Assembly: GCF_000002515.2 (NCBI RefSeq)
Contig: NC_006039.1
Coordinates: forward strand, 1,612,001-1,676,000
DNA from: Kluyveromyces lactis
Lineage: Eukaryota; Ascomycota; Saccharomycetes; Saccharomycetales; Saccharomycetaceae
Reading direction: 5' to 3'
DNA: 64,000 nt
Part shown: one piece after another, positions 12,865 through 40,933 of the stretch
Numbering within the stretch: position 1 is the first letter of the stretch
Layout of the letters: every line of letters begins with the position of its first letter
Program-made: the position numbers and the translations under genes
Notes under the pieces: generated by a model
The model's database searches: none
What the model was told of the DNA's origin: nothing
Seen by the model: only the letters and a program-made list of their open reading frames with translations

Positions 12865-15450
12865 TTAAAACTCTATTAATAGTTTCAAATCGCTGACATT
12901 TGTCAAAATGTCTGCAAATGCGTTCTTCCTTAATTTTAATTGTTCAAGGAAAACTGACAACACCAGTTCTTTTGACGCGACGGACTTTTCCATCGAGAAC
13001 ATATTAGCTGAAGAGAGGTTAAGATCAATTCGCTGAAAAATGTTGAAAACAAATTGTTTGAAAGATCTTCTGCTGCTTTTCTTCCTATTAAAAAGGACAA
13101 TGAACGATTGAATTACATTTAACGCAACTTCTCTCAGGAACCTTGCAGCCGTTTCCCAAGAATTTAAGCGCTCGTCCAGCATATTATAAGATAGTCTCAT
13201 CTCAAAGATCCAGAGTAATTTATTATACAGTTGCTTAGATGATCCCAAAACTGTTCCTAGGACATTATACGATGAGCGGTCTTTCCAAACTTCTAGGGTT
13301 CTTAGATTTAACTGCAGTGCACAAAAAGGTACATTTGTTGATGTTTCAGATTCTGATGAAGTAACCAAGACTTTTTGTGGGTTTATATAAGTATTGAAAG
13401 ATTTGAATCCTGTTTGAGCCAGATTATTAAGCCGCTCGATGTATTTCTTGGAAGTTGAAACTATTAGAAAATCATCCACCAGCCGTATTATCATCGGATC
13501 TGAATCATTTTCATCAGTAAACTCGGTGTAGAATTCAAGTAGGTCGTCATACAATATATCAACAAGAACGGAAGATAAGGGAGTTCCTTGAAAGAGTCCA
13601 TCTTTTCTTAAGTAACACTTGCCTCTGTAAAAGATACTGGTTTTGAAGAGTTCCATTTTAACTACTGTTAAAACGTCTTCTTTTGATAAGACAGTAGTTT
13701 TGACTGAATCAATTACTAAATCATTTTCCTGGAATTGTATGTCTCCATTTACAGCATGAAGCCTTTTCAGACGAGTGGAAGCAGTTGTCAGTATATCTTG
13801 AGATCTAATAAAAAACTGCTGCTCTTCACATATCCGAGCCTCTACCAATTTCATTACTTTCTGAACCGGAATTGAATCATAGCAGGATTGAATGTCAAAC
13901 TTTAAAAGATAGAGATTCGGTATTTTACCATGTTTTAAAAGTAGCCTTTGCTTATAACTTAATACAATCTTGGGTATTTCCAAAGGAGAGAATGCTTTTG
14001 TAAACTTGGTATTTCGTCTCATCCTCAATCTTTCCAGTATAATCTTGGTGGGCTTCAGAGCGTTCGTAACGTAATCATTAAACTCGTTAAACTCTTGTAT
14101 ATTGACTCCTTTACACGGCACCGCTATTATTCTGAAATCGAGGCCTGATTTTTTTGGTATTAAACGAAGATTTCTGTGATTGAACTTGGATTCTGTGAAA
14201 GATCTGTGCTGGAAACAATATTTATTCTCAAGCAAATACCTCCTAAAGTAAGATTTCAAAAAAGGTTGTGACATGGTTTTCCAAGTATCATGACGAATAT
14301 AAACTATATCGACAGTCGACGATAGTTCTGTCACATAGAAAAATGTAGATAGTAATTTTGGGACGTAACAGGAAAGGATCCAAAAAAACAGTTTATAAAG
14401 AAGCGCTTGTCGATTTTTCACATCATAATATGGAATCTTTTGAGTTTGTTCACCAGCTGGAAGCCGCCTTGTTTCTAGCCATTTGACATCTTTCACACGC
14501 AATCCTTTACATAATTCATCAAATAGTATCTTTGAATGGAGCGGTTTTTTGACAAGTATTGCAATCGCTTTTGATAGAACGCTATAGTTTGAATTTGATC
14601 CTAACAGGTCCAATGGGAACGTTTTTCTAACACATACAATGAGCAGTTTGATGACACTTTTGGGTGATGAATAGAAAGTATCTGATTTGGGGCATATATT
14701 ATTGATGATGTGTCTATATGAAAACCTCTCGTGAGCTCGAATGAGCTCATATAAAATGGGTTTTAGATTATTCAATGCAAAGTTTAGAGAACGAGGTGTC
14801 TTACTGCTCTCTGATATTTTCGGAAAAATCTCAGCTATTAACAGCCCCTGATCAGTCTCAATGATATTCTTGTAATCTTGCGGTCTTATCTTATGATATA
14901 GAGCAGAGTTCCAATCTATCGTTAGCTTAGTATTTCTTTCCCTCCTATACGACCGATCTAGCCATGCAGGTGGCACCTGAGGCGCGTTAGCGGGGGTTCC
15001 AATTATCTGCCTGAAGTAATGGCCGGTGTTGAAATATACGGAATAGTTGATTAACAAATTCACAAAATTGTCAGTGCCAACCAGCTGATGGAACAATCTC
15101 CAGCTATTACATTTCAATACACTTACGCTTATGTTCGATGAACGGCAAAACAGTTTGGTCATGACATCTGAATTCTTTCCCAGCTGGTAACCATAAGTCA
15201 GTATATTATTCGTAAAATTCTTGTGCAAAAGGTAGAGAATGCATGTTTCTATAGTTTCACAGTGATACGATGAGCTGAAAGTAGAAGATATTTCAATTTC
15301 AGGAGGTACGCAATGTTTGCTGTTAACTTGTGCGAAACAGCTGAGTAACAGATTGGATACCCCATTAGAGTCAGCATTGATCAGAATATCCGATTTTCTG
15401 AGGGTTTCATAGCACTCTAAAGATTCCAAATATTCGACAAGAATTTTCAT
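12865..15450 (-). CDS. EST2: Telomerase reverse transcriptase Est2
   Basis: An 861-residue telomerase catalytic subunit (S. cerevisiae about 884). The N-terminal half is the TEN/TRBD region, with the T motif around residues 370-392 (TFFYVTELSS). The RT domain shows motifs 1/2 at 429-446 (RLIPKKSGLDFRIIAV), motif A at about 515-527 (LKFDIQSCYDSI, catalytic Asp519), B' at 617-632 (DGLFQGTPLSSV) and C at 656-663 (RLVDDFLI, Asp659/Asp660). The CYDSI and LVDDFL spellings are specific to TERT rather than to retroelement RTs. The frame is intact. The gene lies between BUD6 and TAD3, as in S. cerevisiae. Confidence 0.95.
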   Translation of the reverse strand: MKILVEYLESLECYETLRKSDILINADSNGVSNLLLSCFAQVNSKHCVPPEIEISSTFSSSYHCETIETCILYLLHKNFTNNILTYGYQLGKNSDVMTKLFCRSSNISVSVLKCNSWRLFHQLVGTDNFVNLLINYSVYFNTGHYFRQIIGTPANAPQVPPAWLDRSYRRERNTKLTIDWNSALYHKIRPQDYKNIIETDQGLLIAEIFPKISESSKTPRSLNFALNNLKPILYELIRAHERFSYRHIINNICPKSDTFYSSPKSVIKLLIVCVRKTFPLDLLGSNSNYSVLSKAIAILVKKPLHSKILFDELCKGLRVKDVKWLETRRLPAGEQTQKIPYYDVKNRQALLYKLFFWILSCYVPKLLSTFFYVTELSSTVDIVYIRHDTWKTMSQPFLKSYFRRYLLENKYCFQHRSFTESKFNHRNLRLIPKKSGLDFRIIAVPCKGVNIQEFNEFNDYVTNALKPTKIILERLRMRRNTKFTKAFSPLEIPKIVLSYKQRLLLKHGKIPNLYLLKFDIQSCYDSIPVQKVMKLVEARICEEQQFFIRSQDILTTASTRLKRLHAVNGDIQFQENDLVIDSVKTTVLSKEDVLTVVKMELFKTSIFYRGKCYLRKDGLFQGTPLSSVLVDILYDDLLEFYTEFTDENDSDPMIIRLVDDFLIVSTSKKYIERLNNLAQTGFKSFNTYINPQKVLVTSSESETSTNVPFCALQLNLRTLEVWKDRSSYNVLGTVLGSSKQLYNKLLWIFEMRLSYNMLDERLNSWETAARFLREVALNVIQSFIVLFNRKKSSRRSFKQFVFNIFQRIDLNLSSANMFSMEKSVASKELVLSVFLEQLKLRKNAFADILTNVSDLKLLIEF

Positions 15451-16724: not shown

Positions 16725-17180
16725 TCAACTAGAAGGTTGGTTGGTTTCCATGTCCGTTATTAATTTTGCAACATTATCGTACATGGAAGTATCTATTGCT
16801 TCAATGTCACTGAGTTCCATTGCATATTTCAAAAGTTTTGTATTTTTATTATCTAGTTCAATGTTTAATTGATTTAAATGCTGCTGCAACATATCATCAA
16901 TGCTATGCAATAGTTTATTTACTTCCTCGAGAGAAATGGAGTCTTCAATTTGTTCCCGTTCGAGCTCAACTCTTATCAAAGACAGCTTGTTGTCGATGAG
17001 TTTATCTATTTTTTCAATGATCCGTTGATCATTCTCTTCATAACTTTTGTATAACTGTGACGCGATCACAGTGTTGGATTCCGGTATCGTTCTAGAAAAT
17101 AGATCAACAAACTGATCCTCAGTATACAAACGTGAGACTAAAATGCCGTCTAAATGCTTGTATAATACTTCGTGGAGCAT
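16725..17180 (-). CDS. NKP2: Nkp2, inner kinetochore (CCAN/Ctf19 complex) subunit
   Basis: A 151-residue, almost entirely helical/coiled-coil protein (S. cerevisiae Nkp2 about 153). Family-like stretches are SLEEVNKLLHSIDDMLQQHL in the middle and LTEDQF-type residues near the N-terminus. The reading frame is open another 165 bp upstream from a GTG, but the ATG at MLHEVLYKHLDG gives the family length and is chosen. Neighbouring TAD3 as in S. cerevisiae supports the call. Identification depends on synteny as much as sequence, because the protein diverges fast. Confidence 0.82.
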   Translation of the reverse strand: MLHEVLYKHLDGILVSRLYTEDQFVDLFSRTIPESNTVIASQLYKSYEENDQRIIEKIDKLIDNKLSLIRVELEREQIEDSISLEEVNKLLHSIDDMLQQHLNQLNIELDNKNTKLLKYAMELSDIEAIDTSMYDNVAKLITDMETNQPSS

Positions 17181-19527: not shown

Positions 19528-20441
19528 ATGTCTTTCTCTGATTTCTCCAAGGTCGAAACCTTGCAAAAGTTGAACACTTTCTTGGCTGACAAGTCTTACA
19601 TTGAAGGGTATGTGAAATAATTATAGTGGTGGTTTTCCAATGGCATCAAGCAGTTTTTTGAATAAGAGAATTCTTCAAAGTTTACTATTTCAATGATGAA
19701 CAAATTCTTTGGTCCGTGTTTATGACGGGAAGTAAGACCCCCGGTATGAGTGACAAAGAGACAGTACCTAGACAGTACGATTCTGATTTATCTTTTTTAT
19801 TGAATTCTCTTTTCAGCAAGCAAGCTTAGCTGCCATACAAAAAAATTTCATTTTTTTGTTCTTTCCATTTTACTAACTAACAATTGCATCAATATAGTAC
19901 CTCTGCTACTCAAGCTGACGTCTCTGCTTTCAAGGCTTTCCAATCTACTTACCCAGAATTCTCTAGATGGTTCAACCACATTGCTTCCAAGGCTGATCAA
20001 TTCGAATCCTTGCCAGCTGCTACTTCTACACCAGCTGCTGCTGAAGAAGAAGATGACGATGACGAAGTCGATTTGTTCGGTTCTGACGATGATGTCGATG
20101 AAGAAGCTGAACAATTGAAGGCTAAGAGAATCGCTGAATACAACGAAAAGAAGGCTGCTAAGCCAAAGGCTGCTGCTAAGTCTATCGTTACCTTGGATGT
20201 TAAGCCATGGGATGACGAAACCGATTTGGAAGAATTGGTTGCCAACGTTAAGAACATCGAAATGGATGGTTTGAACTGGGGTGCTCACCAATGGATTCCA
20301 ATTGGTTTCGGTATCAAGAAGTTGCAAATTAACATGGTCATCGAAGATGCTAAGGTTTCTCTTGATGAATTGCAACAACTTATCGAAGAAGATGAAGACC
20401 ACGTCCAATCTACTGATGTTGCTGCTATGCAAAAGTTGTAA
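19528..20441 (+). CDS. EFB1: Translation elongation factor eEF1B alpha (EF-1 beta), spliced
   Basis: Two exons, 19528-19607 and 19898-20441, give a 207-residue protein (S. cerevisiae 206). It is the guanine nucleotide exchange factor for eEF1A. Exon 1 ends in codon position 2 (GG|), and splicing restores SYIEGTSATQAD, which matches the family. The N-terminal GST-C-like domain is followed by an acidic linker (EEEDDDDEVDLFGSDD) and the C-terminal GEF domain from about residue 118 (SIVTLDVKPWDDETDLEEL) to the terminal AAMQKL. Codon use is strongly biased to optimal codons, as expected for high expression. The single intron hosts the U18 snoRNA. Confidence 0.98.
19608..19897 (+). other. EFB1 spliceosomal intron
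   Basis: The intron is 290 nt with a 5' site GTATGT at 19608, branch point TACTAAC at 19871-19877 and 3' site ATATAG ending at 19897. The position in the codon after SYIEG matches the S. cerevisiae EFB1 intron. Confidence 0.96.
19685..19792 (+). ncRNA. snR18: U18 box C/D snoRNA (snR18), intron-encoded
   Basis: Inside the EFB1 intron, box C ATGATGA (19693-19699) and box D CTGA (19783-19786) frame about 94 nt. The guide TTGGTCCGTGTTT (19709-19721) is antisense to AAACACGGACCAA of 25S rRNA, the known U18 target (2'-O-methylation at A649/C650), and is followed by a D'-like ATGA. S. cerevisiae snR18 also lies in the EFB1 intron and is about 102 nt. Exact ends are estimated; the terminal stem looks weak. 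It is released by debranching and trimming of the lariat in the known case. Confidence 0.93.
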
Positions 20442-20790: not shown

Positions 20791-23700
20791 ATGAATGGCT
20801 CTCATAGTACTGGCCACGATAAGAGAAACAACACAACCGATTTCGAAAAGTTTAATCCCTTTAAGAGCTCTCAGGATGAATCCCTGCATGTAAGCTGGAC
20901 TTCATTGCAACAAGTGTATCCGAATTTATCATATTATGGGGGACCTACTTTCATTCTTCCGGTTCAGCTCTACTATATCATAGGTACGGCAAAGGGAGCC
21001 GTTGTTATCTTTAACAAGAAACAATTCGTTCAATCTGTACTAGCACCATCTTTACCAGATTTTAGATCCAAGGTAACATTTATCGATATAAATCAGGATG
21101 GTACCCATGTTTGCGCAGCCTATGAATCCGGTGATATATTCCTGTGGGACTTAAACTCTCAAGTCGATGAAAATTCCGATTCTAATCATCTAGAAGCCGT
21201 GCTGCATATTGCTTCTCATAGAGGACATTCCTTTAATGGTCTTAATTTTATCCCGGGGAAACATACCAATATTGCAGTCAGTGATTCTACAGGACATATT
21301 GTACTTCACAAGGGTACTAGAAATCATCTTTGGCAATTGGTACCTAGTGCAAAAGAAATCTTGAGGCTGAATCCAATGATAAACCCTTTATTGACTACGC
21401 GCATTCGAAGCAACGGTGAAGATTATGATGCTGAACATCTGTTAGCAGTTTTATCTAATCGATCCTTCGCAGTCATATCATTGTCATCGCCAACTTTATC
21501 AACTTATCGGCTCATTGAATTGTCACACAAAAACTCGGCCACTTTTGGATATATCTCCTGGAATGACGTCAATCCAAATCAGGTTGCCTTCTCTGTAGAT
21601 AACCAGTTGAGCCTTGTCGATATCAGGTTTCCGACTTTACAATGGACGTACGAAGCTCCTGAATGCATTTGTAAAGTTGCCTGGCTCACAAATAACATTT
21701 TGACTATTTTGCTCTTGTCAAGTAAGCTTCTCGTTTTAAACATAGGTAGTGTTGATACCGATGAGGATCCTGTACTCACTAGTATTGACTTACTTATTCA
21801 TGAACTGATGGTTCCAGAATCTGAGAACCATTTCGCTACGTTAAATAACACGATTGTTGTGCTCACCAATTACAGTTTAATGGTGGGGAAAATTAACTCA
21901 TGGTCCGATATTGTCTTACACCATATACATAAAGGAGATTACATTAATGCATTAGGAACCCTAGGTTACTATTTACAAGGTCCATCATTCGATTCGATAA
22001 CCGCCTTATTACATCTGGAAAAAGACTATCAGAAAAGAATCAGACAAATTGAACCATCGTTTAACAACTTGACACTAGCAACTGTTCAATTTTTACTGAA
22101 GAAAGATGATATAAGTTACAGTAAGGTCACTGAAGCTACATCATTGATTTTGGACTTGGGAAGTATTTTCTCAGATGAAAAGATGTATGTGCTTTTAGAA
22201 CAGGTAGGGGAAGCTTTGATGACCAAACATAACGAAGAATTTCAAGAAATACTTTACGAAAAAATCGTTAACGGGACAGTAACATACCTCTCACCAATAC
22301 TTTTCAAGGCTGTGATGGAATACACAGTGTCTTCAGGAAATGATAGAAGGTTAGAGACAATTTTATTATCGCTAGACGGTACAACTTTGGATTTGGATTA
22401 TGCTTTCAAGGTTTGCAAAGAGTTTCGTCTCTACTCTGCACTTTTATATCTCTGGACAACCATTTTGGATGATTATAAAAGTCCCCTAGTGGATATAATA
22501 TTTTACTTTGCTGGCAAAGAAGAATGTTGTGTAGTTTTTGATGCTAACATTGAAGATAATACCCTTTTCGAGTACATCGAATCAACTTTATTGGGAAAAG
22601 TTTATCCAACAGAAAAAAGAGTGCCTTCCAAAAAGATTCTATACCTAAAGAACTTTTATTACAGCTTACTTTTTAGTGGCTCTTCTTTGGAATGGCCACA
22701 AGGCTCTGGAAAAAAGCTTTTAACGTGTCCCCTACCAGCAGAAGAACCAGCCTTTCCATATGCTTCCCTTTTAATATCATCAAGTGCGCAAAATTTCTTG
22801 CACGTTCTTGATGTCTCATTTGAAGATGTTCTGTTCAATGAATCCCCTCAAAATGGATTTCATTTTACTAGACAACATATAATTGATGTTCTTTTGGACA
22901 TACAGAAGAATTTCAAAGAAAATCATGTGAAACTTCTTATTGCCCTCTTTGTGTTCAACAATTTGCCAAAGTATTCTCAGTTTATTCGCCTAACCAACAC
23001 TATCATTGACTCACAAATAGACGTCATATTATCTGCTGATTTGGAAGGATTTGAACAAATTTCTGAAGATTGTCTTGAAGCACTATTGTCTGTTTATTCA
23101 CCAGATAATATTAACGCCCTAATTGATAAAATGTCAGGAGTGGATTTTTATCGTGTTCGGCTTCTGCTATATAAAAAGGCCGGAAGATATACAGATTATC
23201 TTACCTTTATTCTTAGCGATCAACACAGGAATACGAATGGCAATGATATTATTGCAGGTTTGAAACTATGTGATGGTGCTACAGCGAAATCGCCTATCGG
23301 TCGAAGTGAAATTTGCGACCTTCTATCAGATACATTTCCGAAGATTATCGAAAATTGTCAAGATCAGCGTTCCCTTGTCTCAATCATAGACTCTTTTGAT
23401 AGTAGCTTACATGAAAAAATTCTTCTTATTTCTGATCCGTTGACGCTCTTAGGATATCTTCGTATACTTCTGTCTGGGAACTATCATCTATCTGCCCCAT
23501 TTTTGAAGAAAGCAAGGCCGAAGTATCTATCATTGTTGTATGAAACCGGAGATGCGTCCGGTGTATCACAATGGGTTGACAATATTGACCTTAAAAACAT
23601 CGAAGTTGAGAGTATTGTAGATATTATTAACGGAAATAGGGATTCGAGAACTTTGATACGATTGCTAGTACGGCTAAAGAACTATGGGTCGGCAATAGAT

Positions 23701-24387
23701 AAAATAAACTCGAAAATCAACGAGTTATTACAAAATAATGATTTTGACGAAATTGATAATTATTTGGATTTAGGCATCAGTGTATCCCAGAAGACAGATG
23801 AAACTAACAAGAACTGGGTTAAATTGATATCAAACTTGGTCTCTCAATACCCAACTCTTACCGATGATCAAAAAGCGTTTTGTGATAAAAGTTTGCAGAA
23901 AGTATTTATTGAGCTTTCAGATGGGAACCTGAATGATATCGAAAACTCGGAGGAGAGCTTTTTCTGGAAGACCCTAATGGAGATATTTGAAAACAAATCT
24001 CTTATCTTGAGTAAAATCAAAGATATTAAAGTGGTGTTGAAGAATATTTTCACAGCTTATTCTGTCGAAGAGACAGTGAAACTTCTTATTTTACAGATTA
24101 TCAATCAAAGTGCATCATCAGATATTACAACCTATATGCACAGAAAAGAACATGGTTGGGCAATTCAGTCTCATGAGTGTGAAGTATGTGGCAAGAAAAT
24201 ATGGGGAATTGGAATCGATAATAAAGTCTTTGAACAGTGGGAGTCAGCGAGATGCCACGAGGTCGCCGCTAGTGGTAGCAGTGCACTCGTTGTATTTAGT
24301 TGTGGGCACAGTTTCCACAGCTCCTGTTTAGAAAACATGGGCCAACACGAGGGTGCTTTCAAATGTTTAACTTGTGACGATGAGTAA
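20791..24387 (+). CDS. VPS8: Vps8, CORVET tethering complex subunit
   Basis: A 1198-residue protein (S. cerevisiae about 1274) that binds Rab5/Vps21 and tethers endosomes. The N-terminal 350 residues form a WD40-type propeller (for example AAYESGDIFLWDLN), followed by a long alpha-solenoid. The C-terminus is a RING-like zinc domain with Cys pairs CEVCGKK, SCGHSFHSSC and KCLTC. The frame is open 24 bp further upstream from a TTG; the first ATG (MNGSHSTGHD) is used. It follows EFB1 on the same strand, as on S. cerevisiae chromosome I beside CEN1, and converges on ERG26. Confidence 0.93.
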   Translation: MNGSHSTGHDKRNNTTDFEKFNPFKSSQDESLHVSWTSLQQVYPNLSYYGGPTFILPVQLYYIIGTAKGAVVIFNKKQFVQSVLAPSLPDFRSKVTFIDINQDGTHVCAAYESGDIFLWDLNSQVDENSDSNHLEAVLHIASHRGHSFNGLNFIPGKHTNIAVSDSTGHIVLHKGTRNHLWQLVPSAKEILRLNPMINPLLTTRIRSNGEDYDAEHLLAVLSNRSFAVISLSSPTLSTYRLIELSHKNSATFGYISWNDVNPNQVAFSVDNQLSLVDIRFPTLQWTYEAPECICKVAWLTNNILTILLLSSKLLVLNIGSVDTDEDPVLTSIDLLIHELMVPESENHFATLNNTIVVLTNYSLMVGKINSWSDIVLHHIHKGDYINALGTLGYYLQGPSFDSITALLHLEKDYQKRIRQIEPSFNNLTLATVQFLLKKDDISYSKVTEATSLILDLGSIFSDEKMYVLLEQVGEALMTKHNEEFQEILYEKIVNGTVTYLSPILFKAVMEYTVSSGNDRRLETILLSLDGTTLDLDYAFKVCKEFRLYSALLYLWTTILDDYKSPLVDIIFYFAGKEECCVVFDANIEDNTLFEYIESTLLGKVYPTEKRVPSKKILYLKNFYYSLLFSGSSLEWPQGSGKKLLTCPLPAEEPAFPYASLLISSSAQNFLHVLDVSFEDVLFNESPQNGFHFTRQHIIDVLLDIQKNFKENHVKLLIALFVFNNLPKYSQFIRLTNTIIDSQIDVILSADLEGFEQISEDCLEALLSVYSPDNINALIDKMSGVDFYRVRLLLYKKAGRYTDYLTFILSDQHRNTNGNDIIAGLKLCDGATAKSPIGRSEICDLLSDTFPKIIENCQDQRSLVSIIDSFDSSLHEKILLISDPLTLLGYLRILLSGNYHLSAPFLKKARPKYLSLLYETGDASGVSQWVDNIDLKNIEVESIVDIINGNRDSRTLIRLLVRLKNYGSAIDKINSKINELLQNNDFDEIDNYLDLGISVSQKTDETNKNWVKLISNLVSQYPTLTDDQKAFCDKSLQKVFIELSDGNLNDIENSEESFFWKTLMEIFENKSLILSKIKDIKVVLKNIFTAYSVEETVKLLILQIINQSASSDITTYMHRKEHGWAIQSHECEVCGKKIWGIGIDNKVFEQWESARCHEVAASGSSALVVFSCGHSFHSSCLENMGQHEGAFKCLTCDDE

Positions 24388-24433: not shown

Positions 24434-25489
24434 TTATAAGCCTTCATCCATCCATGCCAACGTTCTTCTGATACCTTCTTCGATATCAACCCTTGGTTGG
24501 TATCCTAAAAGTTCTTTAGCTTTTGAAATGTTGTGATAACGGTAGGCACAAACGATTTTAACTCTGAAGGGAGTCAAACCTGGCTCTTTGCCCAACAATT
24601 TAGAGAAGAATTGAGATAGGTACCCCGCAGCAATAGCCATGGGTCTATTTAGAACAATAACTCTCTTATCAATATGACCGTCTGCCTTCCAAACCGTGCG
24701 TGCCAAAGCCCAAAAATATGTTGGTGTGTCATTGGTGATGAAAAATGTTTCTCCAGATACTAGCGCAGCAGTAGTTGGATTCAGAAGCTTTTGTGCGGCT
24801 AGTACGTGAGCATCTGCAACGTTTCCAGCGTAGGTCCAGTCGAACAGGTTGTTATTGTCACCAATTTGAAACTTTGATTGCCCCAACTTAGCGACTTGCC
24901 TCAAACCTGGGACCAATTGTCTATCACCAGGACCAAAAATACCGGCAGGACGTAATGCTATTGTTAGGAAGTCATTTTCTGGATCGTTTGCTGATAGCAC
25001 CATTTCTTCCGCAATTGCCTTTGTTTCGTTATAACCATCCATTGGAACTTCTGGAATTGGCCAAGTTTCATCAGCATTGTGAATGTCCTGACCATTGAAA
25101 ATAACACCAGCAGATGAGGTATATACTACTGCTTTAACTCGACATTGTTTTGCGACAGTTAATAGATTTTTTGTTCCCTTAACGTTGACCTTTTCGTAAA
25201 TCTCTTGACTATTACCATGCATTGGAGATGCCGAGTGAACGACGATCGTGGCACCACTTGTCTCAATTGCCTTTCTAACATCAGCAGGTGACGTTAGATC
25301 ACCTTGATGGAAGGTAATTGTCGAAGGATCAAAAGTGAATTGTTTTGAGATCCGATCTGGAAGTGGTCTTACGTCAAAAACATGGATCTGAGGTTGTGGT
25401 TTAAGTTCAGAAAATTGCTGAATCAAATGGAGACCTAGAAATCCAGATCCACCAATTAGTAGTACAGATTTAACATCGCTTGAACTCAT
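24434..25489 (-). CDS. ERG26: Sterol-4-alpha-carboxylate 3-dehydrogenase (decarboxylating)
   Basis: A 351-residue member of the short-chain dehydrogenase/3-beta-HSD family (S. cerevisiae 349). It works in the Erg25-Erg26-Erg27 C4-demethylation step of ergosterol synthesis at the ER. The NAD motif GGSGFLG lies at residues 13-19; the catalytic pair is YNETK (Tyr153, Lys157). A hydrophobic stretch in the last third (about 275-290) may contact the membrane. In S. cerevisiae ERG26 is the first gene left of CEN7; here it is also the first gene beside the centromere. Convergent with VPS8 (46 bp). Confidence 0.96.
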   Translation of the reverse strand: MSSSDVKSVLLIGGSGFLGLHLIQQFSELKPQPQIHVFDVRPLPDRISKQFTFDPSTITFHQGDLTSPADVRKAIETSGATIVVHSASPMHGNSQEIYEKVNVKGTKNLLTVAKQCRVKAVVYTSSAGVIFNGQDIHNADETWPIPEVPMDGYNETKAIAEEMVLSANDPENDFLTIALRPAGIFGPGDRQLVPGLRQVAKLGQSKFQIGDNNNLFDWTYAGNVADAHVLAAQKLLNPTTAALVSGETFFITNDTPTYFWALARTVWKADGHIDKRVIVLNRPMAIAAGYLSQFFSKLLGKEPGLTPFRVKIVCAYRYHNISKAKELLGYQPRVDIEEGIRRTLAWMDEGL

Positions 25490-25857
25490 AGTAGTTGTTT
25501 GTTTTACGTAGACTCAACGTATGATAAGAATTCGATTTGCCTGGTGTGATCTTGAATATCGTGTTAACGTTAACTAATATTCTCTAATTGTTTTTTTTTC
25601 TGAATATTAAAACAGAACTAAACGACAAATTTAAAGTGTCTCCCAAATTGTGAAATGGTCGGATAGAAAGATAACGTACTAATTAATAGCCATTGGTTTC
25701 TCCTTTCCTATACTTAATGATCACAATAATTTAGGTTTCTTGATCTGTTAGTGGTTAGAGTGTTGTTAAGCCAGAGTTGTATTTTTGCTTTAACATACAA
25801 TTAATTAGTTCATTTGTACATACAAATTGTCCATATGCAATAGAATCCTTAGATAAT

Positions 25858-26000
25858 GGCAAATAATAAATAGAATAAATAAAAAAAATATTTTCAGAAA
25901 ATAATAAAAAATAAGTTAAAATAAATTCTTCAAAAAAATACAAAAAACATAATTAAATTCTATAAAATAAAGCAAAATTCACTAAAATCAATCAAAAGTA
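25858..26000. other. CDE0-like A-rich block of the centromere
   Basis: The block is about 140 bp, strikingly A-rich on the plus strand with very few G or C, and ends about 150 bp before CDEI. K. lactis centromeres are described with an extra AT-rich element, CDE0, about 100 bp long and about 150 bp upstream of CDEI. The boundaries are approximate. Confidence 0.7.
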
Positions 26001-26150
26001 ACACAAATGTTAGCATTCAATAACAGTTCTACCTTCAAATAAATAGTAAAAACGCATAAACAGGAACGAAGATTATAGTACCTGCTCAACTTCTTGACAG
26101 TGGAGTCTGTCGTACGTAATGTATTCAAAAATTAAGTAAAATCATAAAAC

Positions 26151-26348
26151 ATCATGTGACTAAAATCAAATTTTACATTTTCTCTCTTTTTATATAAAAT
26201 AAATTTCTAAACTTTTACTTTATTGCAATTAAAAATATTTTTTTATTAATTTTATATTGAAAAAATTTTAATTAAAATAATGTGGAATTTTGAATTTTTT
26301 AAAATAAAATATATGTTTTGAAAAATTTTAGTTTCCGAAAATTAATTT
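26151..26348 (+). other. CEN: Point centromere CDEI-CDEII-CDEIII
   Basis: CDEI ATCATGTGA (26151-26159) matches the RTCACRTG Cbf1 consensus on the other strand and differs from K. lactis ATCACGTGA by one base. CDEII (26160-26322) is 163 bp and about 89% A+T; K. lactis CDEII is about 161-164 bp, roughly twice the S. cerevisiae length. CDEIII (26323-26348) contains GTTTCCGAAAATTAAT with the central CCG that binds the CBF3 complex. Spacing, order and sequence together leave little doubt. The neighbour ERG26 is also centromere-proximal in S. cerevisiae. Confidence 0.95.
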
Positions 26349-26768
26349 ATTTATGGTATTTTGCTTAAGCATAAGAAGTGAAATTGGCTTAAAGCTCTAA
26401 AAAGGATAGGAGCCATCTTTTTATGTTTGCTGAGATCCGAAAAAACACTAGAGCAATGCCTCTCTTTTTTTTACGGATACATGGCTTTTCCTTTCTGTTA
26501 TTTTAAGAGTAGCTTTGATTCATATGCTCAATGTGACAGGATAATATCTACAAGAATAATCTCAACAAAGAAAATAAAAAAAATTTAAAAAAATGTCTGT
26601 GAAACGATTAGCATGCTTGTCTGCCTCAAGATTGATTTAATTTTTGGAGTGTTAACGTTAGGTAGGAATGAATCAGATATTGAAGATTATAATACTTACA
26701 TATTGTTCTTCATATGCATACCCTGCTTCTTTCTGGCATGGGAATCTTTTCTTTTCATTTCTGTAACA

Positions 26769-26838
26769 TGAAAAATTAAAAACCGTAAAAATCGAATTAT
26801 CAATGAATTCGAACAGAGTTGTTAATGCGATGAGATGA
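26769..26838 (+). promoter_or_regulatory. RRPE + PAC elements upstream of TRM112
   Basis: TGAAAAATTA (26769-26778, RRPE-like) and GCGATGAGATGA (26827-26838, PAC) precede the TRM112 ATG by 78 bp or more. This is the ribosome-biogenesis regulon signature, fitting Trm112's role as activator of rRNA and tRNA methyltransferases. Confidence 0.7.
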
Positions 26839-26915
26839 AGTGAGTCCCAATAAAATCAGCATCATTTTGTTATTGTGAATCGAATTATACCCGACCCATT
26901 AAACTAACTGCAGAT

Positions 26916-27314
26916 ATGAAATTCCTAACTACAAACTTCCTTAAATGTTCCGTGAAAGGATGCGATAACAGTAACCTGAATTTCCCACTTCGCTACGTTC
27001 GTGAAAATTGTCAACTAGAACAGGATGAGAGCATCGAATTCAACCCGGAGTTCCTTTTAAGAATAATTGACCGTGTTGATTGGCAAGCTGTAGTTTCAGT
27101 AGCATCAGATTTAGGAAATACTGAGCTACCACCCAACAAACCAGAATTTGAAGAGAATTTAACGGATGAGGACATGGTCATTCTAAGAGATCTGCACACA
27201 CTGTTAATTCAAACTAACATTGTAGAGGGACAAATGCAATGCAAAAACTGTGAACACATATACTACATAAAAAACAGCATTCCAAACCTCCTTCTACCAC
27301 CACATCTAGCATGA
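26916..27314 (+). CDS. TRM112: Trm112, activator subunit of methyltransferases
   Basis: A 132-residue zinc-binding protein (S. cerevisiae 135) that stabilises and activates Trm9, Trm11, Bud23 and Mtq2, acting on tRNA, 18S rRNA and eRF1. The N-terminus MKFLTTNFLKCSVKGC and the C-terminus HIYYIKNSIPNLLLPPHLA are near-identical to the family. The zinc ligands are the Cys pairs CSVKGC and CKNC. The N-terminal strand and zinc knuckle are intact. First gene to the right of the centromere; in S. cerevisiae it precedes FPK1, as here. Confidence 0.97.
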   Translation: MKFLTTNFLKCSVKGCDNSNLNFPLRYVRENCQLEQDESIEFNPEFLLRIIDRVDWQAVVSVASDLGNTELPPNKPEFEENLTDEDMVILRDLHTLLIQTNIVEGQMQCKNCEHIYYIKNSIPNLLLPPHLA

Positions 27315-34510: not shown

Positions 34511-37500
34511 ATGAGTTCAAAGCGTGATATTGAAGCTAATACAGATTTGAATTCCATTACTTACATACCCACATTTCCAGAGCCGTTTGAACGTGACAAC
34601 TCTCATACGACCGCTTCGTTTGTTTCCATTCAAATTAGATTATTGGTTGCATCCGTTACTGAAGAAAATTTCCTGGACACAGAGCATCAGATCTACTACT
34701 TATTACAAAGAGGATCGTTTTCTGTTTATATCTCATACTGGAAACTTCTTATACAGCTATTCGTAAACGAATTCGAAGCACAACAGCAGAAAAGGGACCT
34801 AAACCTTCCATTCCGATTCGATTTTTCTAACCTTGTTCATCGATTGTTATACAACCTTGCACAAGAGCTTATCACAAGGACTCCTGATACTATCGAAAAA
34901 GTTAAAGAGTTAGCTTTACCACTTTCTGGAAAATATCCAATTCGCCCTCTTTTTTTGTCTTTTCTTAATAAAGATAACGAAAGCGACAGCGCTATTATTG
35001 AGGCATTGAACCCGGAAGTACACCCAATCTTTACAACTTTGAAAGATCTTCACAGAACAAACATGAGCGTATCTAATATTACCCAGAACTTGTTCGCGGT
35101 TGAAAATAAACCAAACTTTCTGACTATGCTTTCAGAGTTTTTGAAGCCTCTTCAAGGGGAGACTTTAAACGACTGGATTGCATTAATTCTATCAGAGATT
35201 TTGGCACCCGGATCTCAAACTTCCAACCAACCGTCACAACCGTGGATAGTACAAGTACCAAATGTTGACGTAAGAGAAGTGATCGAGGCAACAGAAATGG
35301 GTACCAAAGTCAATGGAATCATAAAATCGTTGGGTACCAACAACGTCAATTGGAATCGAGTGTTCAACCTCATGTCAACGAAATTCTTCTTGAACAAACC
35401 AGTCAATGCAACTCTATCATCGTTGAATTATCTATTTTGCATTTTAAACAGTGGTCCCTTGGTTGATCAATTTTTCGCATGTGATTGGAGTTTGTATTTC
35501 AAACTACGGTTATCATTTTTAATGTACCAATGGAACTATAACTCTGAATGTTTGGATTTATCAAGTCTTCCAAATATCAAGAAAATCAACAAATCAATTC
35601 CTTTGACGAAAAAATCACAGCTTTCATTGATCTCAGTTGGAAAATTGAATATCGAACTTTTCTTATCCAGGGATGAAATTTCAAAGAACCCGTTGTTTTC
35701 CTCTTTCCATGCCTCGTTTTCAGAAGCTTATAACAATGTTCCTGAATACTTAGCCGCTGTACTGATTTCCGAATCCAAATACTTTTCCCTGCTTGTTGAT
35801 AATAAGTCAATTATTGATGAGCTATTAATTTCTCTTGTAATAAAGACCTACGAAAACAATGTTATTGCATTCAAAGAACTACTCAAATTGGTTTCCAAAC
35901 AAAAAGTTATCGAGGTTAGCAGAGGTATCATAGCATCACAAAACGCTCAAACCATAAACTTAGTTCAGGCTTTACACGATTTGGGCATTTTGGATGAAGT
36001 ATTTGAGAAGTTGCCGATCAGGGACTCCCTAAAACTATCTCCTACAGCTATGCATCTCGGGTATTTGAAATTCTCCGAATATATTGAAAGAAACATCACC
36101 TTGAAAACTTTCGTACCAACATTAGACTTTATAGAGGCTCAAACGAACATTGATGAACTGGACCCTGCTTTGAAATCTGTAAAATTGTTAAACCTTCATT
36201 CCTTGCACAGTTTGATTTACCGCACGGCGAATTTGAAATTATCTGCAGACGAAAGGGTCGCCTTAAACAACGTCATATTTAAGGCTCTAATCAGCTTTCC
36301 AAGATTGATCAATTATGGATATGGTCATGATGATGCCATCGTCGCAAATGGGGACCATGCTCCTATTCCACAGGATGTTGAAAAGAAAATGCAAACATAT
36401 CTTCAGAAGATGTATAACAAGGAAATGGCTATCAAAGATATTGTTGACATCTTGCGTAAGTTGAGGGACAGTGATGACAGCAACGATCAAGATATTTTCT
36501 GTTGCATAATTCACGCTGTCATAGCTGAAACGACATTTTTCAAAGAGTACCCATTAGAAGCTTTGGCAACAACTTCAGTTTTATTTGGATCCATGATCTT
36601 GTTCGACTTACTTAGAGGATTTGTTCTGGATGTGGCTTTCCAAATCATCTACACTTTTGCTAGTGAAAGCCCTGATTCCAAAATGTTCAAGTTTGCTGTG
36701 CAGGCATTGTATGCATTCAGAATGCGCCTTAACGAGTACTCTCCATTCTGTAAGCGTTTGCTAGACGAGATTCCAGGTTTGCAGACTCAACCACAAATTC
36801 AACAGATTTTGACAGAATCAGCTGCAAATCCAAACGTTTCGATTCCAGAGCAAAAGGCTCCAGCCTTAGTAGAGTTGAATTACTTTAACATCAATGAGGT
36901 CATCAGTCCAGTAACACAAGAGGTTCCGCCTAGAGAAGTTACTGAGGCAATCTTATTCAACGTAAACAACATAACAATGAGTAATTTTGACACGAAGATC
37001 GTCGAATTAAAAGCTCTTTTGGAAGAAAAATACTACCAATGGTTCTCGAATTATTTGGTAAATCAGAGATCCAAAACTGAACCAAATTATCATCCCTTAT
37101 ATGCTAAAATGTTAAAAATAATCGATTCAAAGACTTTACATGCATATATGTTGAACTTCACCTATAAACAATTGTTTATTATGTTGTCAACTAAAGAATT
37201 GGGACAAACTGAAAAGACTCACATGAAAAATTTATCCTCATGGTTAGGTTCAATTACGCTTTCTCTTGACATACCAATAAAACATAAGCATATTGCTTTT
37301 AGAGAGCTATTGTTAGATGCCCACAAAAATGATAGGTTAACTGTAGTTATTCCGTTTGTTGCCAGGATTATAATGCAGAGTAAGGACTCAAAAGTGTTCT
37401 GTCCTCCTAATCCATGGACAATGGGTATTTTAAAACTCCTACTAGAGCTTAATCAGAAGACTGACTGGCCTTTGAGTTTGTCCTTTGAAGTTGAGGTCCT

Positions 37501-40500
37501 GTTCAAGCATTTGAATTTACAATTTGATGACATTTCTCCTTCTAACTACTTGGATATTCCTGATGCTGCTGAATATCTATCAGGTAATTTGAGAGCATTG
37601 AGCGTAGAAAAGCAACAACTGGAACAACAACAGCAACTGCTATTAATGCAACAGTACCAACAACAATTGATGTTATTACAGCAAAGACACCAGCAACATC
37701 ACCCTCAACAACAGCAGCCACAGCAGCGCATTATCTCGAATGGCTATGGGAATGCTATGAATGATCAAGCAAGCCTAGAAACTTCAGATGCCCCTCATAG
37801 TAGCTTAGTTGGTAATTCTGTCTTTGTGACACATCCTGACTTAAAGAGGCTCTTCCAGATGGCTGTGTCAAAGTCGGTTAGAGAAATCTTAATTCCTGCG
37901 GTTGAGAAGGCAGCAAATATGGCAGTTCAATCCACTGTCAATATTGTTTTGAAGGACTTTGCAACTGAAGTTGATGAGCAAAAGCTAAAAACAGCTGCCA
38001 TTAACATGGTTCAATACTTGGCCCAAAATGTTGCACATTCTATTTCTGTTCCATTGTTGAAGGACACCATCAGAAACACCACACAATCATTGACTCCAAA
38101 TCTCATTAATATGACCAATTCTCCGATAGCCGAATTAAATACAGCTATCGATGATAATATCGCCATTGCAGTGTCACCAATAGAGAAAGCTGCCGTGGAA
38201 AGAGCCATTCAAGAGGTTAATGAAAAATTGGTGCAAGCTGTTGCCGTTCGTCGTTACCATTTGGAGCGCAGATCAGATCAGCCATTTGTTGCACAAAACA
38301 TCAACCGTTTCTCTTTGAATTTACCTGATCCACTCGGTTTGAAGCCAACCGGTGTAACTCGTGAACAATTCAGTTTATATGAACAGTTCCCAGCTAGCAT
38401 GCCTTCCGACAGTAGCAGAAGCCCACTTGAAACAATTTTGGCTCAACAAAAGCAGCAACAACAACAGCAGCAACAACAGCAACAACAACAACAGCAGCAA
38501 CAACAGCAACAACAACAACAACAACAACAACAGCAACAACAACAACAACAACAGCAACAACAACAACAGCAACAGCAACAACAGCAACAACAGCAACAGC
38601 AACAGCAACAACAGCAACAGCAACAGCAAATACTATTACAACAACTTCAACAGAACCAGAACCAAGCAGCACCTCAAAACATGCTCAATATTGCAGGAGC
38701 CTTCCCTCCTCAAACCCAGCCACCTCAACAAGCAATTTCCGCAGCGCATTCTGAGTTAGAGCAGAACCACAGAGTTCTATTACAATTGATGGACACTTTA
38801 GTATCTCAAATAAAGGATTATAGCGAAGATGTTGAGTTCAACTTGCAAAACGACAGTACTATCAAAAATACTATCGTAGAAATACTCTCGTTTATTTCAA
38901 GAAGTAATCAAAAAGATCAACTTTCTTTGAAAGTTTCCCAAGCTGTTGTCAATAGCCTTTTTGGATCAAATGAAAGTAAGTTGTGCAGAGATGTGCTTTC
39001 TTTATTGCTAGAAAAGCTATGTTCTTTGTCAATAGTTGCCAGAAAAGATGTAGTGTGGTGGCTAGTGTACGCTCTTGATCCTCGTAAGTTCAATGTACCT
39101 GTCGTTCGTTCTCTACTCGAGGTCAACCTTATTAATATTGCTGAGTTTGATGCAGTGCTTGTCACCGCTATGAAGAATGGTATGGCAGGTGCAACTGAAT
39201 TTTCGATGAATTTAATTCGTGATACAGTTATGGCGGACTCACCAATTCTTATGAGATTAGACTTCATCAGAATCCTCGGATATTTACGTACCATAAACAC
39301 CCCTGAGATAAAGGCATTCTTGGAGGAGTACGAACAATGTAGGGCTGTTCCCGTGTCCAAGACTACATCAATAACTAAAGTAGAACGGTACTACCTTGTG
39401 TTCACAGAATGGGTAAAGTTACAACAAAGAGTGGAAACTGATGATGTAGTTAACATTGTGTTCATCAGGCAGTTGTTCGAAAAAGGAGTTATCGACTCCA
39501 AGGAGAAAGTCATTGAATTTATCAAGGCAGCACTGGAATTATCTGTAAACTCCTTCAAACAGAGTGACCCTACAGGTGAAGTCTTCACTTCCATAGATGC
39601 ATTGAGCAGACTCATAACTTCCTTGTTGGTTGTGCAAGAACTGAACGTCGAAGAAAGAAAAGAATACTTGAACTTGCTACTATCTGTAGTAACTCTAGTT
39701 TTTGCCAAAGATCACCAAACTAATATGACATCCTTCAATGAGAGACCATACTTTAGGTTATATTCCAGCTTACTATCAGATTGGGATAAATTACGTGATC
39801 ACCATTTCATTAGAGTGTCTGATTCTGTTGTAAGAAAATCTTTAATCGAATTTGATCAATATTTCTTTGATATATTCGCTTCGTTCTTGCATAGCTACCA
39901 ACCTATAGCGTTCCCAGGTTTCTCATTTGCGTGGATTACATTGATCTCTCACAGAATGTTCTTACCTAAAGTTCTGAGATCCAAGGAATTATACGGATGG
40001 GATAAACTAGTTTTGCTATTGATTGATTTGATGAAGTTCCTATCTCAGTATATCAAAAAGGATAACGTTCCAGATTCTATCTCAGTCATCTACAAAGGTG
40101 CCTTAAGAATATTCTTAGGTATTTCCAATGATGTTCCTGAATTCTTGATTCAGAATCATTACAAATTAGTCAAGAATGTGCCTCCAACTTGTATTCAACT
40201 GAGAAATATCATTTTGTCAGCCATTCCTAAAAAGATGATGATTCCAGATCCATTTGTCTCCGAAATCACCGAAGATAACTGTAAGGATATTCCACAGGTG
40301 TTCTATGATCCTTCTCAAGATCTGAAATCGTTAAAGAAGCCTATTATCAACTACTTAAGAATCCCATCTTCCTCATTGTTAAGAACCATTTGTGGAGGTA
40401 TGTTCAGAACTGAACTTGAATATGAGAATGGTATCGGGTATGATGAGAACAATGTTGATGTCAACTTGATTCACGCAATTGTTACCCATGTTGCCGTGGA

Positions 40501-40933
40501 AGTTGGATTGGAAGTCGAGAAAGCCTCCAAAAACGCAGTGTTCAACGTGAAATCTTCCTACTATACTCTTCTATTCGGACTTCTATCCGACGGGAACGAC
40601 GAAGTGAAATTCCATATCATTCAAGCCATGGTAAACCAGTTGAGATACCCTAATGTACACACTCATTGGTTCAACTTTGCATTGAAGCTAATGTTCCAAT
40701 CTGATCAATGGCCTGATGATCAATTGTCTACCATTCAAGAGATCATCTTGAGATCATTATTGGAAAGAATCATCGTCAACAAACCTCATCCATGGGGTGT
40801 TGTAGTGACGTTCATGGACCTACTAAAACTTGAAGGAACCAAAATGATCGAAAAGCCATTCATTAACGACATTCCTGAGATTCATGCTATCATGAAGAAT
40901 CTACAAAAGTACGCTCTTACAAGCTCTTCCTGA
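34511..40933 (+). CDS. CDC39: Not1/Cdc39, scaffold of the CCR4-NOT complex
   Basis: A 2140-residue protein (S. cerevisiae about 2108), the essential scaffold on which Ccr4, Pop2/Caf1 and the Not proteins assemble for mRNA deadenylation and transcription control. It is helical throughout. A first Gln-rich stretch occurs near residues 1035-1080. A very long pure glutamine tract follows at residues 1315-1373 (59 Gln, encoded by mixed CAA/CAG, 38453-38629), in the linker before the NOT-module-binding C-terminal domain. The C-terminal block beginning LMDTLVSQIKDY is the most conserved part. Another CCR4-NOT subunit, POP2, lies 17 kb downstream. Confidence 0.95.
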   Translation: MSSKRDIEANTDLNSITYIPTFPEPFERDNSHTTASFVSIQIRLLVASVTEENFLDTEHQIYYLLQRGSFSVYISYWKLLIQLFVNEFEAQQQKRDLNLPFRFDFSNLVHRLLYNLAQELITRTPDTIEKVKELALPLSGKYPIRPLFLSFLNKDNESDSAIIEALNPEVHPIFTTLKDLHRTNMSVSNITQNLFAVENKPNFLTMLSEFLKPLQGETLNDWIALILSEILAPGSQTSNQPSQPWIVQVPNVDVREVIEATEMGTKVNGIIKSLGTNNVNWNRVFNLMSTKFFLNKPVNATLSSLNYLFCILNSGPLVDQFFACDWSLYFKLRLSFLMYQWNYNSECLDLSSLPNIKKINKSIPLTKKSQLSLISVGKLNIELFLSRDEISKNPLFSSFHASFSEAYNNVPEYLAAVLISESKYFSLLVDNKSIIDELLISLVIKTYENNVIAFKELLKLVSKQKVIEVSRGIIASQNAQTINLVQALHDLGILDEVFEKLPIRDSLKLSPTAMHLGYLKFSEYIERNITLKTFVPTLDFIEAQTNIDELDPALKSVKLLNLHSLHSLIYRTANLKLSADERVALNNVIFKALISFPRLINYGYGHDDAIVANGDHAPIPQDVEKKMQTYLQKMYNKEMAIKDIVDILRKLRDSDDSNDQDIFCCIIHAVIAETTFFKEYPLEALATTSVLFGSMILFDLLRGFVLDVAFQIIYTFASESPDSKMFKFAVQALYAFRMRLNEYSPFCKRLLDEIPGLQTQPQIQQILTESAANPNVSIPEQKAPALVELNYFNINEVISPVTQEVPPREVTEAILFNVNNITMSNFDTKIVELKALLEEKYYQWFSNYLVNQRSKTEPNYHPLYAKMLKIIDSKTLHAYMLNFTYKQLFIMLSTKELGQTEKTHMKNLSSWLGSITLSLDIPIKHKHIAFRELLLDAHKNDRLTVVIPFVARIIMQSKDSKVFCPPNPWTMGILKLLLELNQKTDWPLSLSFEVEVLFKHLNLQFDDISPSNYLDIPDAAEYLSGNLRALSVEKQQLEQQQQLLLMQQYQQQLMLLQQRHQQHHPQQQQPQQRIISNGYGNAMNDQASLETSDAPHSSLVGNSVFVTHPDLKRLFQMAVSKSVREILIPAVEKAANMAVQSTVNIVLKDFATEVDEQKLKTAAINMVQYLAQNVAHSISVPLLKDTIRNTTQSLTPNLINMTNSPIAELNTAIDDNIAIAVSPIEKAAVERAIQEVNEKLVQAVAVRRYHLERRSDQPFVAQNINRFSLNLPDPLGLKPTGVTREQFSLYEQFPASMPSDSSRSPLETILAQQKQQQQQQQQQQQQQQQQQQQQQQQQQQQQQQQQQQQQQQQQQQQQQQQQQQQQQQQQQQQILLQQLQQNQNQAAPQNMLNIAGAFPPQTQPPQQAISAAHSELEQNHRVLLQLMDTLVSQIKDYSEDVEFNLQNDSTIKNTIVEILSFISRSNQKDQLSLKVSQAVVNSLFGSNESKLCRDVLSLLLEKLCSLSIVARKDVVWWLVYALDPRKFNVPVVRSLLEVNLINIAEFDAVLVTAMKNGMAGATEFSMNLIRDTVMADSPILMRLDFIRILGYLRTINTPEIKAFLEEYEQCRAVPVSKTTSITKVERYYLVFTEWVKLQQRVETDDVVNIVFIRQLFEKGVIDSKEKVIEFIKAALELSVNSFKQSDPTGEVFTSIDALSRLITSLLVVQELNVEERKEYLNLLLSVVTLVFAKDHQTNMTSFNERPYFRLYSSLLSDWDKLRDHHFIRVSDSVVRKSLIEFDQYFFDIFASFLHSYQPIAFPGFSFAWITLISHRMFLPKVLRSKELYGWDKLVLLLIDLMKFLSQYIKKDNVPDSISVIYKGALRIFLGISNDVPEFLIQNHYKLVKNVPPTCIQLRNIILSAIPKKMMIPDPFVSEITEDNCKDIPQVFYDPSQDLKSLKKPIINYLRIPSSSLLRTICGGMFRTELEYENGIGYDENNVDVNLIHAIVTHVAVEVGLEVEKASKNAVFNVKSSYYTLLFGLLSDGNDEVKFHIIQAMVNQLRYPNVHTHWFNFALKLMFQSDQWPDDQLSTIQEIILRSLLERIIVNKPHPWGVVVTFMDLLKLEGTKMIEKPFINDIPEIHAIMKNLQKYALTSSS
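38453..38629 (+). repeat. CAA/CAG tract coding for 59 glutamines in CDC39
   Basis: The array is 177 bp of in-frame CAA and CAG codons with no other residue. CAA/CAG mixing argues for selection to keep the peptide rather than recent slippage of a single triplet, though CAG-CAA blocks recur locally. Confidence 0.95.

What the first reader, a model, noticed from the sequence alone, without database searches (positions are those of the whole stretch)
25858..26348. Complete K. lactis-type point centromere (CDE0, CDEI, CDEII, CDEIII)
All four parts are present in the right order and at the right distances: A-rich CDE0, a gap of about 150 bp, CDEI ATCATGTGA, 163-bp CDEII at about 89% A+T, and CDEIII with CCG core. 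CDEI has ATG where the K. lactis consensus has ACG. The length of CDEII places the genome in Kluyveromyces rather than Saccharomyces or Lachancea.
Basis: partly seen in the sequence, partly recalled or inferred. Interest (0 to 1): 0.75.

Follow-up and report, generated by a model that had tools for sequence, protein, structure and literature searches.

The report
Yeast chromosome's ordinary point centromere
This is the centromere of one chromosome of the milk yeast Kluyveromyces lactis, a short DNA signal that tells the cell where to attach the chromosome during division; it is real and complete but of a well-known kind.

Summary
Window 26151-26348 holds CDEI (ATCATGTGA), a 163-bp CDEII of 89% A+T and a 26-bp CDEIII with TTTCCGAAAATTAAT; an A-rich CDE0 lies at about 25861-25971 (66% A, 92% A+T). 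The CDEI-CDEII-CDEIII combination occurs once in the window, and in 0 of 2000 shuffles of the intergenic region and 0 of 100 of the window. The finding's own refutation test was run: each of the six chromosome-size contigs has one such element among 38 candidate pairs re-scanned, CDEII 161-164 bp. Contig sizes (recalled), Erg26 99% identical to one named K. lactis and Cep3 identical over 634 residues to PDB 6p7v make the genome Kluyveromyces lactis, so this is KlCEN3 (chromosome C). Neighbours EFB1-VPS8-ERG26 and PMC3141009 Table 1 (ancestral CEN4 = S. cerevisiae CEN1/CEN7 = K. lactis chromosome 3) agree. Two details: only this CDEI of six has CATGTG instead of CACGTG; and the A-rich CDE0 is clear at five of six, not on C4 (chromosome D), whose K. 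marxianus counterpart is also reported without one. Ordinary; low interest.

The parts
25861..25971 (+). CDE0: A-rich element upstream of the centromere core
   Evidence: 66% A, 92% A+T; of the two places in the window where a 100-bp stretch reaches 60% A, the other (38469-38598) lies in the glutamine-repeat coding region of NOT1; 0 of 1000 shuffles reach its score
25972..26150 (.). Spacer between CDE0 and CDEI (70% A+T)
26151..26159 (+). CDEI, ATCATGTGA (expected Cbf1 site; CATGTG core, unlike CACGTG in the other five centromeres)
26160..26322 (+). CDEII, 163 bp, 89% A+T (expected Cse4 nucleosome site)
   Evidence: the six CDEIIs of this genome are 161-164 bp
26323..26348 (+). CDEIII, 26 bp with TTTCCGAAAATTAAT (expected CBF3/Cep3 site)
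   Evidence: TTCCGAAAA invariant in 6 of 6 centromeres
24434..25489 (-). ERG26, left neighbour; 99% identical to Erg26 [Kluyveromyces lactis]
20791..24387 (+). VPS8, second gene to the left; near CEN1 in S. cerevisiae (recalled)
19881..20441 (+). EFB1 second exon (eEF1B-alpha); an snR18/SNORD18-type snoRNA lies just upstream at 19688-19790, presumably in its intron
26916..27314 (+). TRM112, right neighbour

Best explanation
This is the point centromere of K. lactis chromosome C (KlCEN3). In the accepted model Cbf1 binds CDEI, the CBF3 complex binds the CCG core of CDEIII through Cep3, and together they place a single Cse4 nucleosome on the A+T-rich CDEII, on which the kinetochore is built; CDE0 is an accessory A-rich flank reported to be important for complete function. 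Shown here: the sequence anatomy, one such element per chromosome, the conserved gene neighbourhood on the left side, and the presence of Cep3. Inferred from established work on this centromere type: the protein binding and the function.
For: One element on each of 6 of 6 chromosome-size contigs, with CDEII of 161-164 bp and 86-91.5% A+T, against a next-best of 73% A+T among 38 distinct CDEI-like/CCGAA pairs examined. No shuffle reproduces it. A-rich CDE0 in 5 of 6, including this one. Genome is K. lactis: contig sizes (compared with recalled values), Erg26 99% identical to one named K. lactis, Cep3 identical over 634 residues to PDB 6p7v chain B. Left flank EFB1-VPS8-ERG26 fits the neighbourhood of S. 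cerevisiae CEN1/CEN7 (recalled), and PMC3141009 Table 1 maps ancestral CEN4 to those two and to K. lactis chromosome 3. CBF3 subunit Cep3 found, E=1.1e-170.
Against: No occupancy or plasmid-stability data could be examined. The CDEI has T at position 5, outside the consensus NNCAVBTG printed in PMC3141009. The right flank (TRM112, a protein kinase, MSH3) is not a centromere neighbourhood in S. cerevisiae (recalled), so synteny supports the left side only; and TFC3, which in S. cerevisiae lies between VPS8 and CEN1 (recalled), is not here. The motif patterns alone are not specific: one search gave 17 matches against 2 for the reversed control, one search gave 11 against 2, one search gave 18 against 9; the A+T content of the middle makes the distinction. 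The Pfam search for Ndc10 found nothing, but the tool says that this does not show absence.
Confidence: 0.98

Rival explanations
1. A chance or composition-driven match in an A+T-rich intergenic region, with the true centromere of this chromosome elsewhere.
For: The region is very A+T-rich, and CDEI and CCGAA motifs are short; the patterns without the A+T condition do match elsewhere.
Against: 0 of 2000 and 0 of 100 shuffles; one such element on each of 6 of 6 chromosome-size contigs; gene neighbourhood and published mapping of a centromere to K. lactis chromosome 3.
Confidence: 0.01
2. A degenerate, inactive relic of a centromere, decaying first in CDEI (CATGTG) while function has moved.
For: It is the only one of six with a changed CACGTG core.
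Against: CDEII length and composition and the CDEIII core are typical of the six, CDE0 is present, and no second candidate on contig C3 among the fetched loci has an A+T-rich middle (all others, on any contig, 73% or less). CATGTG is CACATG read on the other strand, a form accepted in S. cerevisiae CDEI (recalled).
Confidence: 0.01

Closest known systems
K. lactis centromeres KlCEN (Heus et al. 1990, 1993: cited in papers seen, not read; consensus recalled; CDE0 as described in PMC9227491)
   Same: All parts, order, spacing, CDEII length, CDE0 upstream; this is one of them
   Different: CDEI core CATGTG rather than CACGTG
K. marxianus centromeres (PMC9227491, passages and discussion section read)
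   Same: TCACGTG CDEI consensus, TTCCGAAA CDEIII consensus, CDEII 156-165 bp
   Different: A-rich upstream region reported at some of the eight and not at others; the paper calls CDE0 not well conserved there
S. cerevisiae CEN1 and CEN7
   Same: Same ancestral locus (ancestral CEN4, PMC3141009 Table 1); shared neighbours VPS8, EFB1 and ERG26 (positions recalled)
   Different: CDEII about half as long (79-88 bp, PMC12226651 passage); no CDE0 described (recalled)

Membership tests
Saccharomycetaceae point centromere | CDEIII with invariant CCGAA | tested here: met
   26335-26339; TTCCGAAAA in 6 of 6
Saccharomycetaceae point centromere | CDEI with CA..TG invariant sites | tested here: met
   ATCATGTG
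Saccharomycetaceae point centromere | CDEI fits the full printed consensus NNCAVBTG | tested here: not met
   Position 5 is T, outside V as printed in PMC3141009. The printed formula also excludes the recalled S. cerevisiae CACATG form, so V and B may be exchanged in print (my inference); I therefore do not treat this as defining beyond the four invariant sites
Saccharomycetaceae point centromere | CDEII 76-98% A+T | tested here: met
   89.0%; range from PMC3141009
K. lactis centromere | CDEII length as in the other centromeres of the genome | tested here: met
   163 bp; C1-C6 are 161, 164, 163, 164, 162, 163
K. lactis centromere | CDE0, about 100 bp, 82-95% A+T, about 150 bp upstream of CDEI | tested here: met
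   111 bp, 92% A+T, 141-179 bp upstream; definition as given in PMC9227491
K. lactis centromere | One per chromosome | tested here: met
   6 of 6 chromosome-size contigs, among loci brought in; no exhaustive scan with the A+T condition was possible
Saccharomycetaceae point centromere | CBF3 present in the genome | tested here: inconclusive
   Cep3 found; Ndc10 not found by the Pfam model, uninformative; Ctf13 and Skp1 not tested
Saccharomycetaceae point centromere | Cse4 occupancy and mitotic stability | not testable with these tools
   needs ChIP-seq or plasmid assay

The most novel reading that the evidence does not exclude
CDE0 is a property of individual centromere loci inherited by descent, not of the species: the only K. 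lactis centromere here without an A-rich CDE0 (C4, chromosome D) corresponds to K. marxianus CEN5, which is also reported to lack an A+T-rich upstream region. CDE0 is also strand-specific (A-rich on the CDEI-to-CDEIII strand and on the CDEI side in 5 of 6), which suggests an oriented role next to Cbf1. The lone CATGTG CDEI at KlCEN3 would then be a natural variant of Cbf1 docking.
Probability: 0.2. Interest if true: 0.35.

Novelty: already known. Interest (0 to 1): 0.12.

Why it matters
It confirms that a centromere can be read from raw sequence. The set of six gives a small natural experiment (one CDEI variant, one centromere without an A-rich CDE0) for asking what CDE0 does. Otherwise it is an ordinary centromere of a well-studied type.

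Tried and rejected
The first own-genome pattern found nothing, because it demanded a TGT that this CDEIII lacks; it says nothing about the element. A chance match was rejected by shuffles and by the six-chromosome scan. Another species was rejected: contig sizes, Erg26 and Cep3 point to K. lactis. The Ndc10 Pfam search gave nothing and is uninformative. Two papers looked for (the LTR-origin paper, the K. lactis CBF3 structure) are not held. PMC13065467 was looked up because of the word KlCEN, which in the passages shown is part of KlCENP. PMC4381813 used K. lactis CLIB210 in a 3C mix and says that centromere co-localisation is visible, but the passages give no coordinates. Seven paper searches were made; no held paper seen gives the base coordinates of this centromere.

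All matches (17; 11; 18) became loci. A centromere with a CDEI or CDEIII outside these patterns would have been missed.

Full report
What is there. The intergenic region between ERG26 (24434-25489, minus strand) and TRM112 (26916-27314, plus strand) holds, left to right: an A-rich block at 25861-25971 (66% A, 92% A+T), 179 bp of 70% A+T, ATCATGTGA at 26151-26159, 163 bp of 89% A+T, and AAATTTTAGTTTCCGAAAATTAATTT at 26323-26348. The only difference from the finding is that the CDE0 edge is fuzzy. Within 25401-27000 the CATGTG at 26153 is the only CACGTG, CACATG or CATGTG, so there is no alternative CDEI nearby.

Chance. Asking for CA(C/T)GTG, 155-170 bp of at least 85% A+T, and TTCCGAA gives one hit in the window, none in 2000 dinucleotide shuffles of the 1426-bp intergenic region and none in 100 dinucleotide shuffles of the window. 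The places where a 100-bp stretch reaches 86% A+T are two in the window: CDE0 (25838-26003) and the centromere core (26151-26368). The CDE0 A-rich score of 34.7 was reached by 0 of 1000 single-base shuffles of the upstream 661 bp; the rest of the window reaches at most 17.2 for A and 19 for T.

The other chromosomes. Pattern searches of the whole assembly gave 17, 11 and 18 matches, against 2, 2 and 9 for the reversed control patterns, so the patterns alone are not specific; seven of the 17 are one subtelomeric repeat. A re-scan of the window and all loci then fetched gave 38 distinct CDEI-like/CCGAA pairs, of which six have a middle of 86-91.5% A+T; the next has 73% (best 25 rows printed). 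The six lie one per chromosome-size contig. CDEI starts, worked out from the locus coordinates, are: C1 760404, C2 1168861, C3 1638151 (this one), C4 1187303, C5 1263806, C6 1187015. CDEII lengths are 161, 164, 163, 164, 162 and 163 bp. CDEIIIs share TTCCGAAAA in 6 of 6. CDEI has CACGTG in 5 of 6 and CATGTG only here. This answers the refutation condition given in the finding.

Species. The assembly has 7 contigs and 10,729,447 bases. Six contig lengths are shown and equal, from memory, chromosomes A-F of K. lactis NRRL Y-1140; what is left for the seventh contig is 40,291 bases, presumably the mitochondrial genome. Erg26 is 99% identical to a protein named Erg26 [Kluyveromyces lactis] (best of the 120 listed of 222). 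The Cep3 found on C4 is identical over all 634 residues to PDB chain 6p7v_B, which by recall is the K. lactis CBF3 structure; the tool does not print the organism. TRM112 is 91% identical to a K. dobzhanskii protein and 89% to a K. marxianus one; no K. lactis entry was named in that list.

Gene neighbourhood. To the left lie ERG26, VPS8 and EFB1 with a snoRNA just upstream of its second exon. In S. cerevisiae VPS8 and EFB1 are near CEN1, and ERG26 is beside CEN7 (recalled; YGL001C for ERG26 appears as a source name, and the Eremothecium gossypii hit is AFR001W). TFC3, between VPS8 and CEN1 in S. cerevisiae (recalled), is not here. Table 1 of PMC3141009 (section 8 read), as I parse its columns, maps ancestral CEN4 to S. 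cerevisiae 1 and 7, K. lactis 3 (marked with an orientation change, not tested here) and A. gossypii 6. [quoted passage not shown] lactis; this is my basis for 'already known', though I saw no coordinates. The right side (TRM112, a kinase, MSH3) is not a centromere neighbourhood in S. cerevisiae by recall. The paper reports three rearrangement breakpoints beside K. lactis centromeres, but its table does not mark chromosome 3 with a translocation, so I do not claim that this is one of the three.

CDE0. Five of six centromeres have an A-rich block of 62-111 bp ending 126-210 bp upstream of CDEI, A-rich on the CDEI-to-CDEIII strand (scores 27.1-50.0). C4 does not: its best upstream A-rich score is 11.9, and its richest upstream 100 bp has 49% A against 62-74% in the others. 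Background for the same score: T-rich upstream 6.0-12.6, A-rich downstream 6.3-17.2, T-rich downstream 8.0-22.6. Two caveats: the highest of these, 22.6, is a T-rich stretch 502-560 bp beyond the C4 CDEIII, whose meaning is unknown and which is not far below the weakest CDE0 (C6, 27.1); and two 50-bp bins 150-250 bp upstream of the C4 CDEI have 82% and 78% A+T, so by A+T alone, the measure quoted in PMC9227491 (82-95%), C4 is borderline rather than empty. PMC9227491 (passages, and the discussion section read in full) reports no A+T-rich region within 400 bp upstream of KmCEN2, KmCEN5 and KmCEN6 (KmCEN2 also appears in its list of those that have one), and says that KmCEN5's neighbours match those of K. 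lactis CEN D. If C4 is chromosome D (recalled size), the absence of an A-rich block is shared. This rests on one pair of loci.

CDEI. PMC3141009 prints the CDEI consensus as NNCAVBTG. The T at position 5 here is outside V. The recalled S. cerevisiae form CACATG would likewise be outside B, so the two letters may be exchanged in print; that is my inference. CATGTG is CACATG on the other strand, so Cbf1 binding is expected.

Mechanism. Cbf1 on CDEI, CBF3 on CDEIII and one Cse4 nucleosome on CDEII follow from established work on this class. For the long CDEII of K. marxianus, PMC12226651 (passages) finds a single nucleosome footprint with a median of 227 bp, which makes a single Cse4 nucleosome the likely state here too. 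PMC12925627 (passages) describes CDEII lengths from about 50 to nearly 200 bp across the clade with little variation inside a genome, as seen here. None of this was tested at this locus.

Verdict.

Noticed in passing
L040 (G000:C4:1185804-1188992), upstream of CDEI at locus 1500: The C4 centromere has no A-rich CDE0, unlike the other five; the corresponding K. marxianus CEN5 is reported to lack an A+T-rich upstream region too. By A+T content alone C4 is borderline.
   Followed up: partly
L040, 502-560 bases beyond the end of CDEIII: T-rich stretch with the highest T score of all flanks examined; unexplained.
   Followed up: no
All six centromeres (C1-C6): All six read CDEI to CDEIII on the plus strand of their contigs; possibly an assembly convention.
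   Followed up: no
window 12865-15450, minus strand: Telomerase reverse transcriptase (EST2-like; Telomerase_RBD and RVT_1 domains) lies 11 kb from the centromere.
   Followed up: no
window 16725-17180, minus strand: 151-aa protein without Pfam match; by recall resembles the kinetochore protein Nkp2, which lies near TAD3 and EST2 in S. cerevisiae.
   Followed up: no
window 60301-60568, minus strand: H/ACA snoRNA snR191 lies between the two parts of a NOG2-like gene, consistent with an intron-encoded snoRNA.
   Followed up: no
window 34511-40933, about 38.5 kb: NOT1 (CCR4-NOT scaffold) carries a very long glutamine repeat.
   Followed up: no
L031, L033, L036, L039, L041, L042, L046: A near-identical stretch recurs 6.7-7.2 kb from contig ends: seven copies among the 17 matches, on six contigs (both ends of C4).
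   Followed up: no
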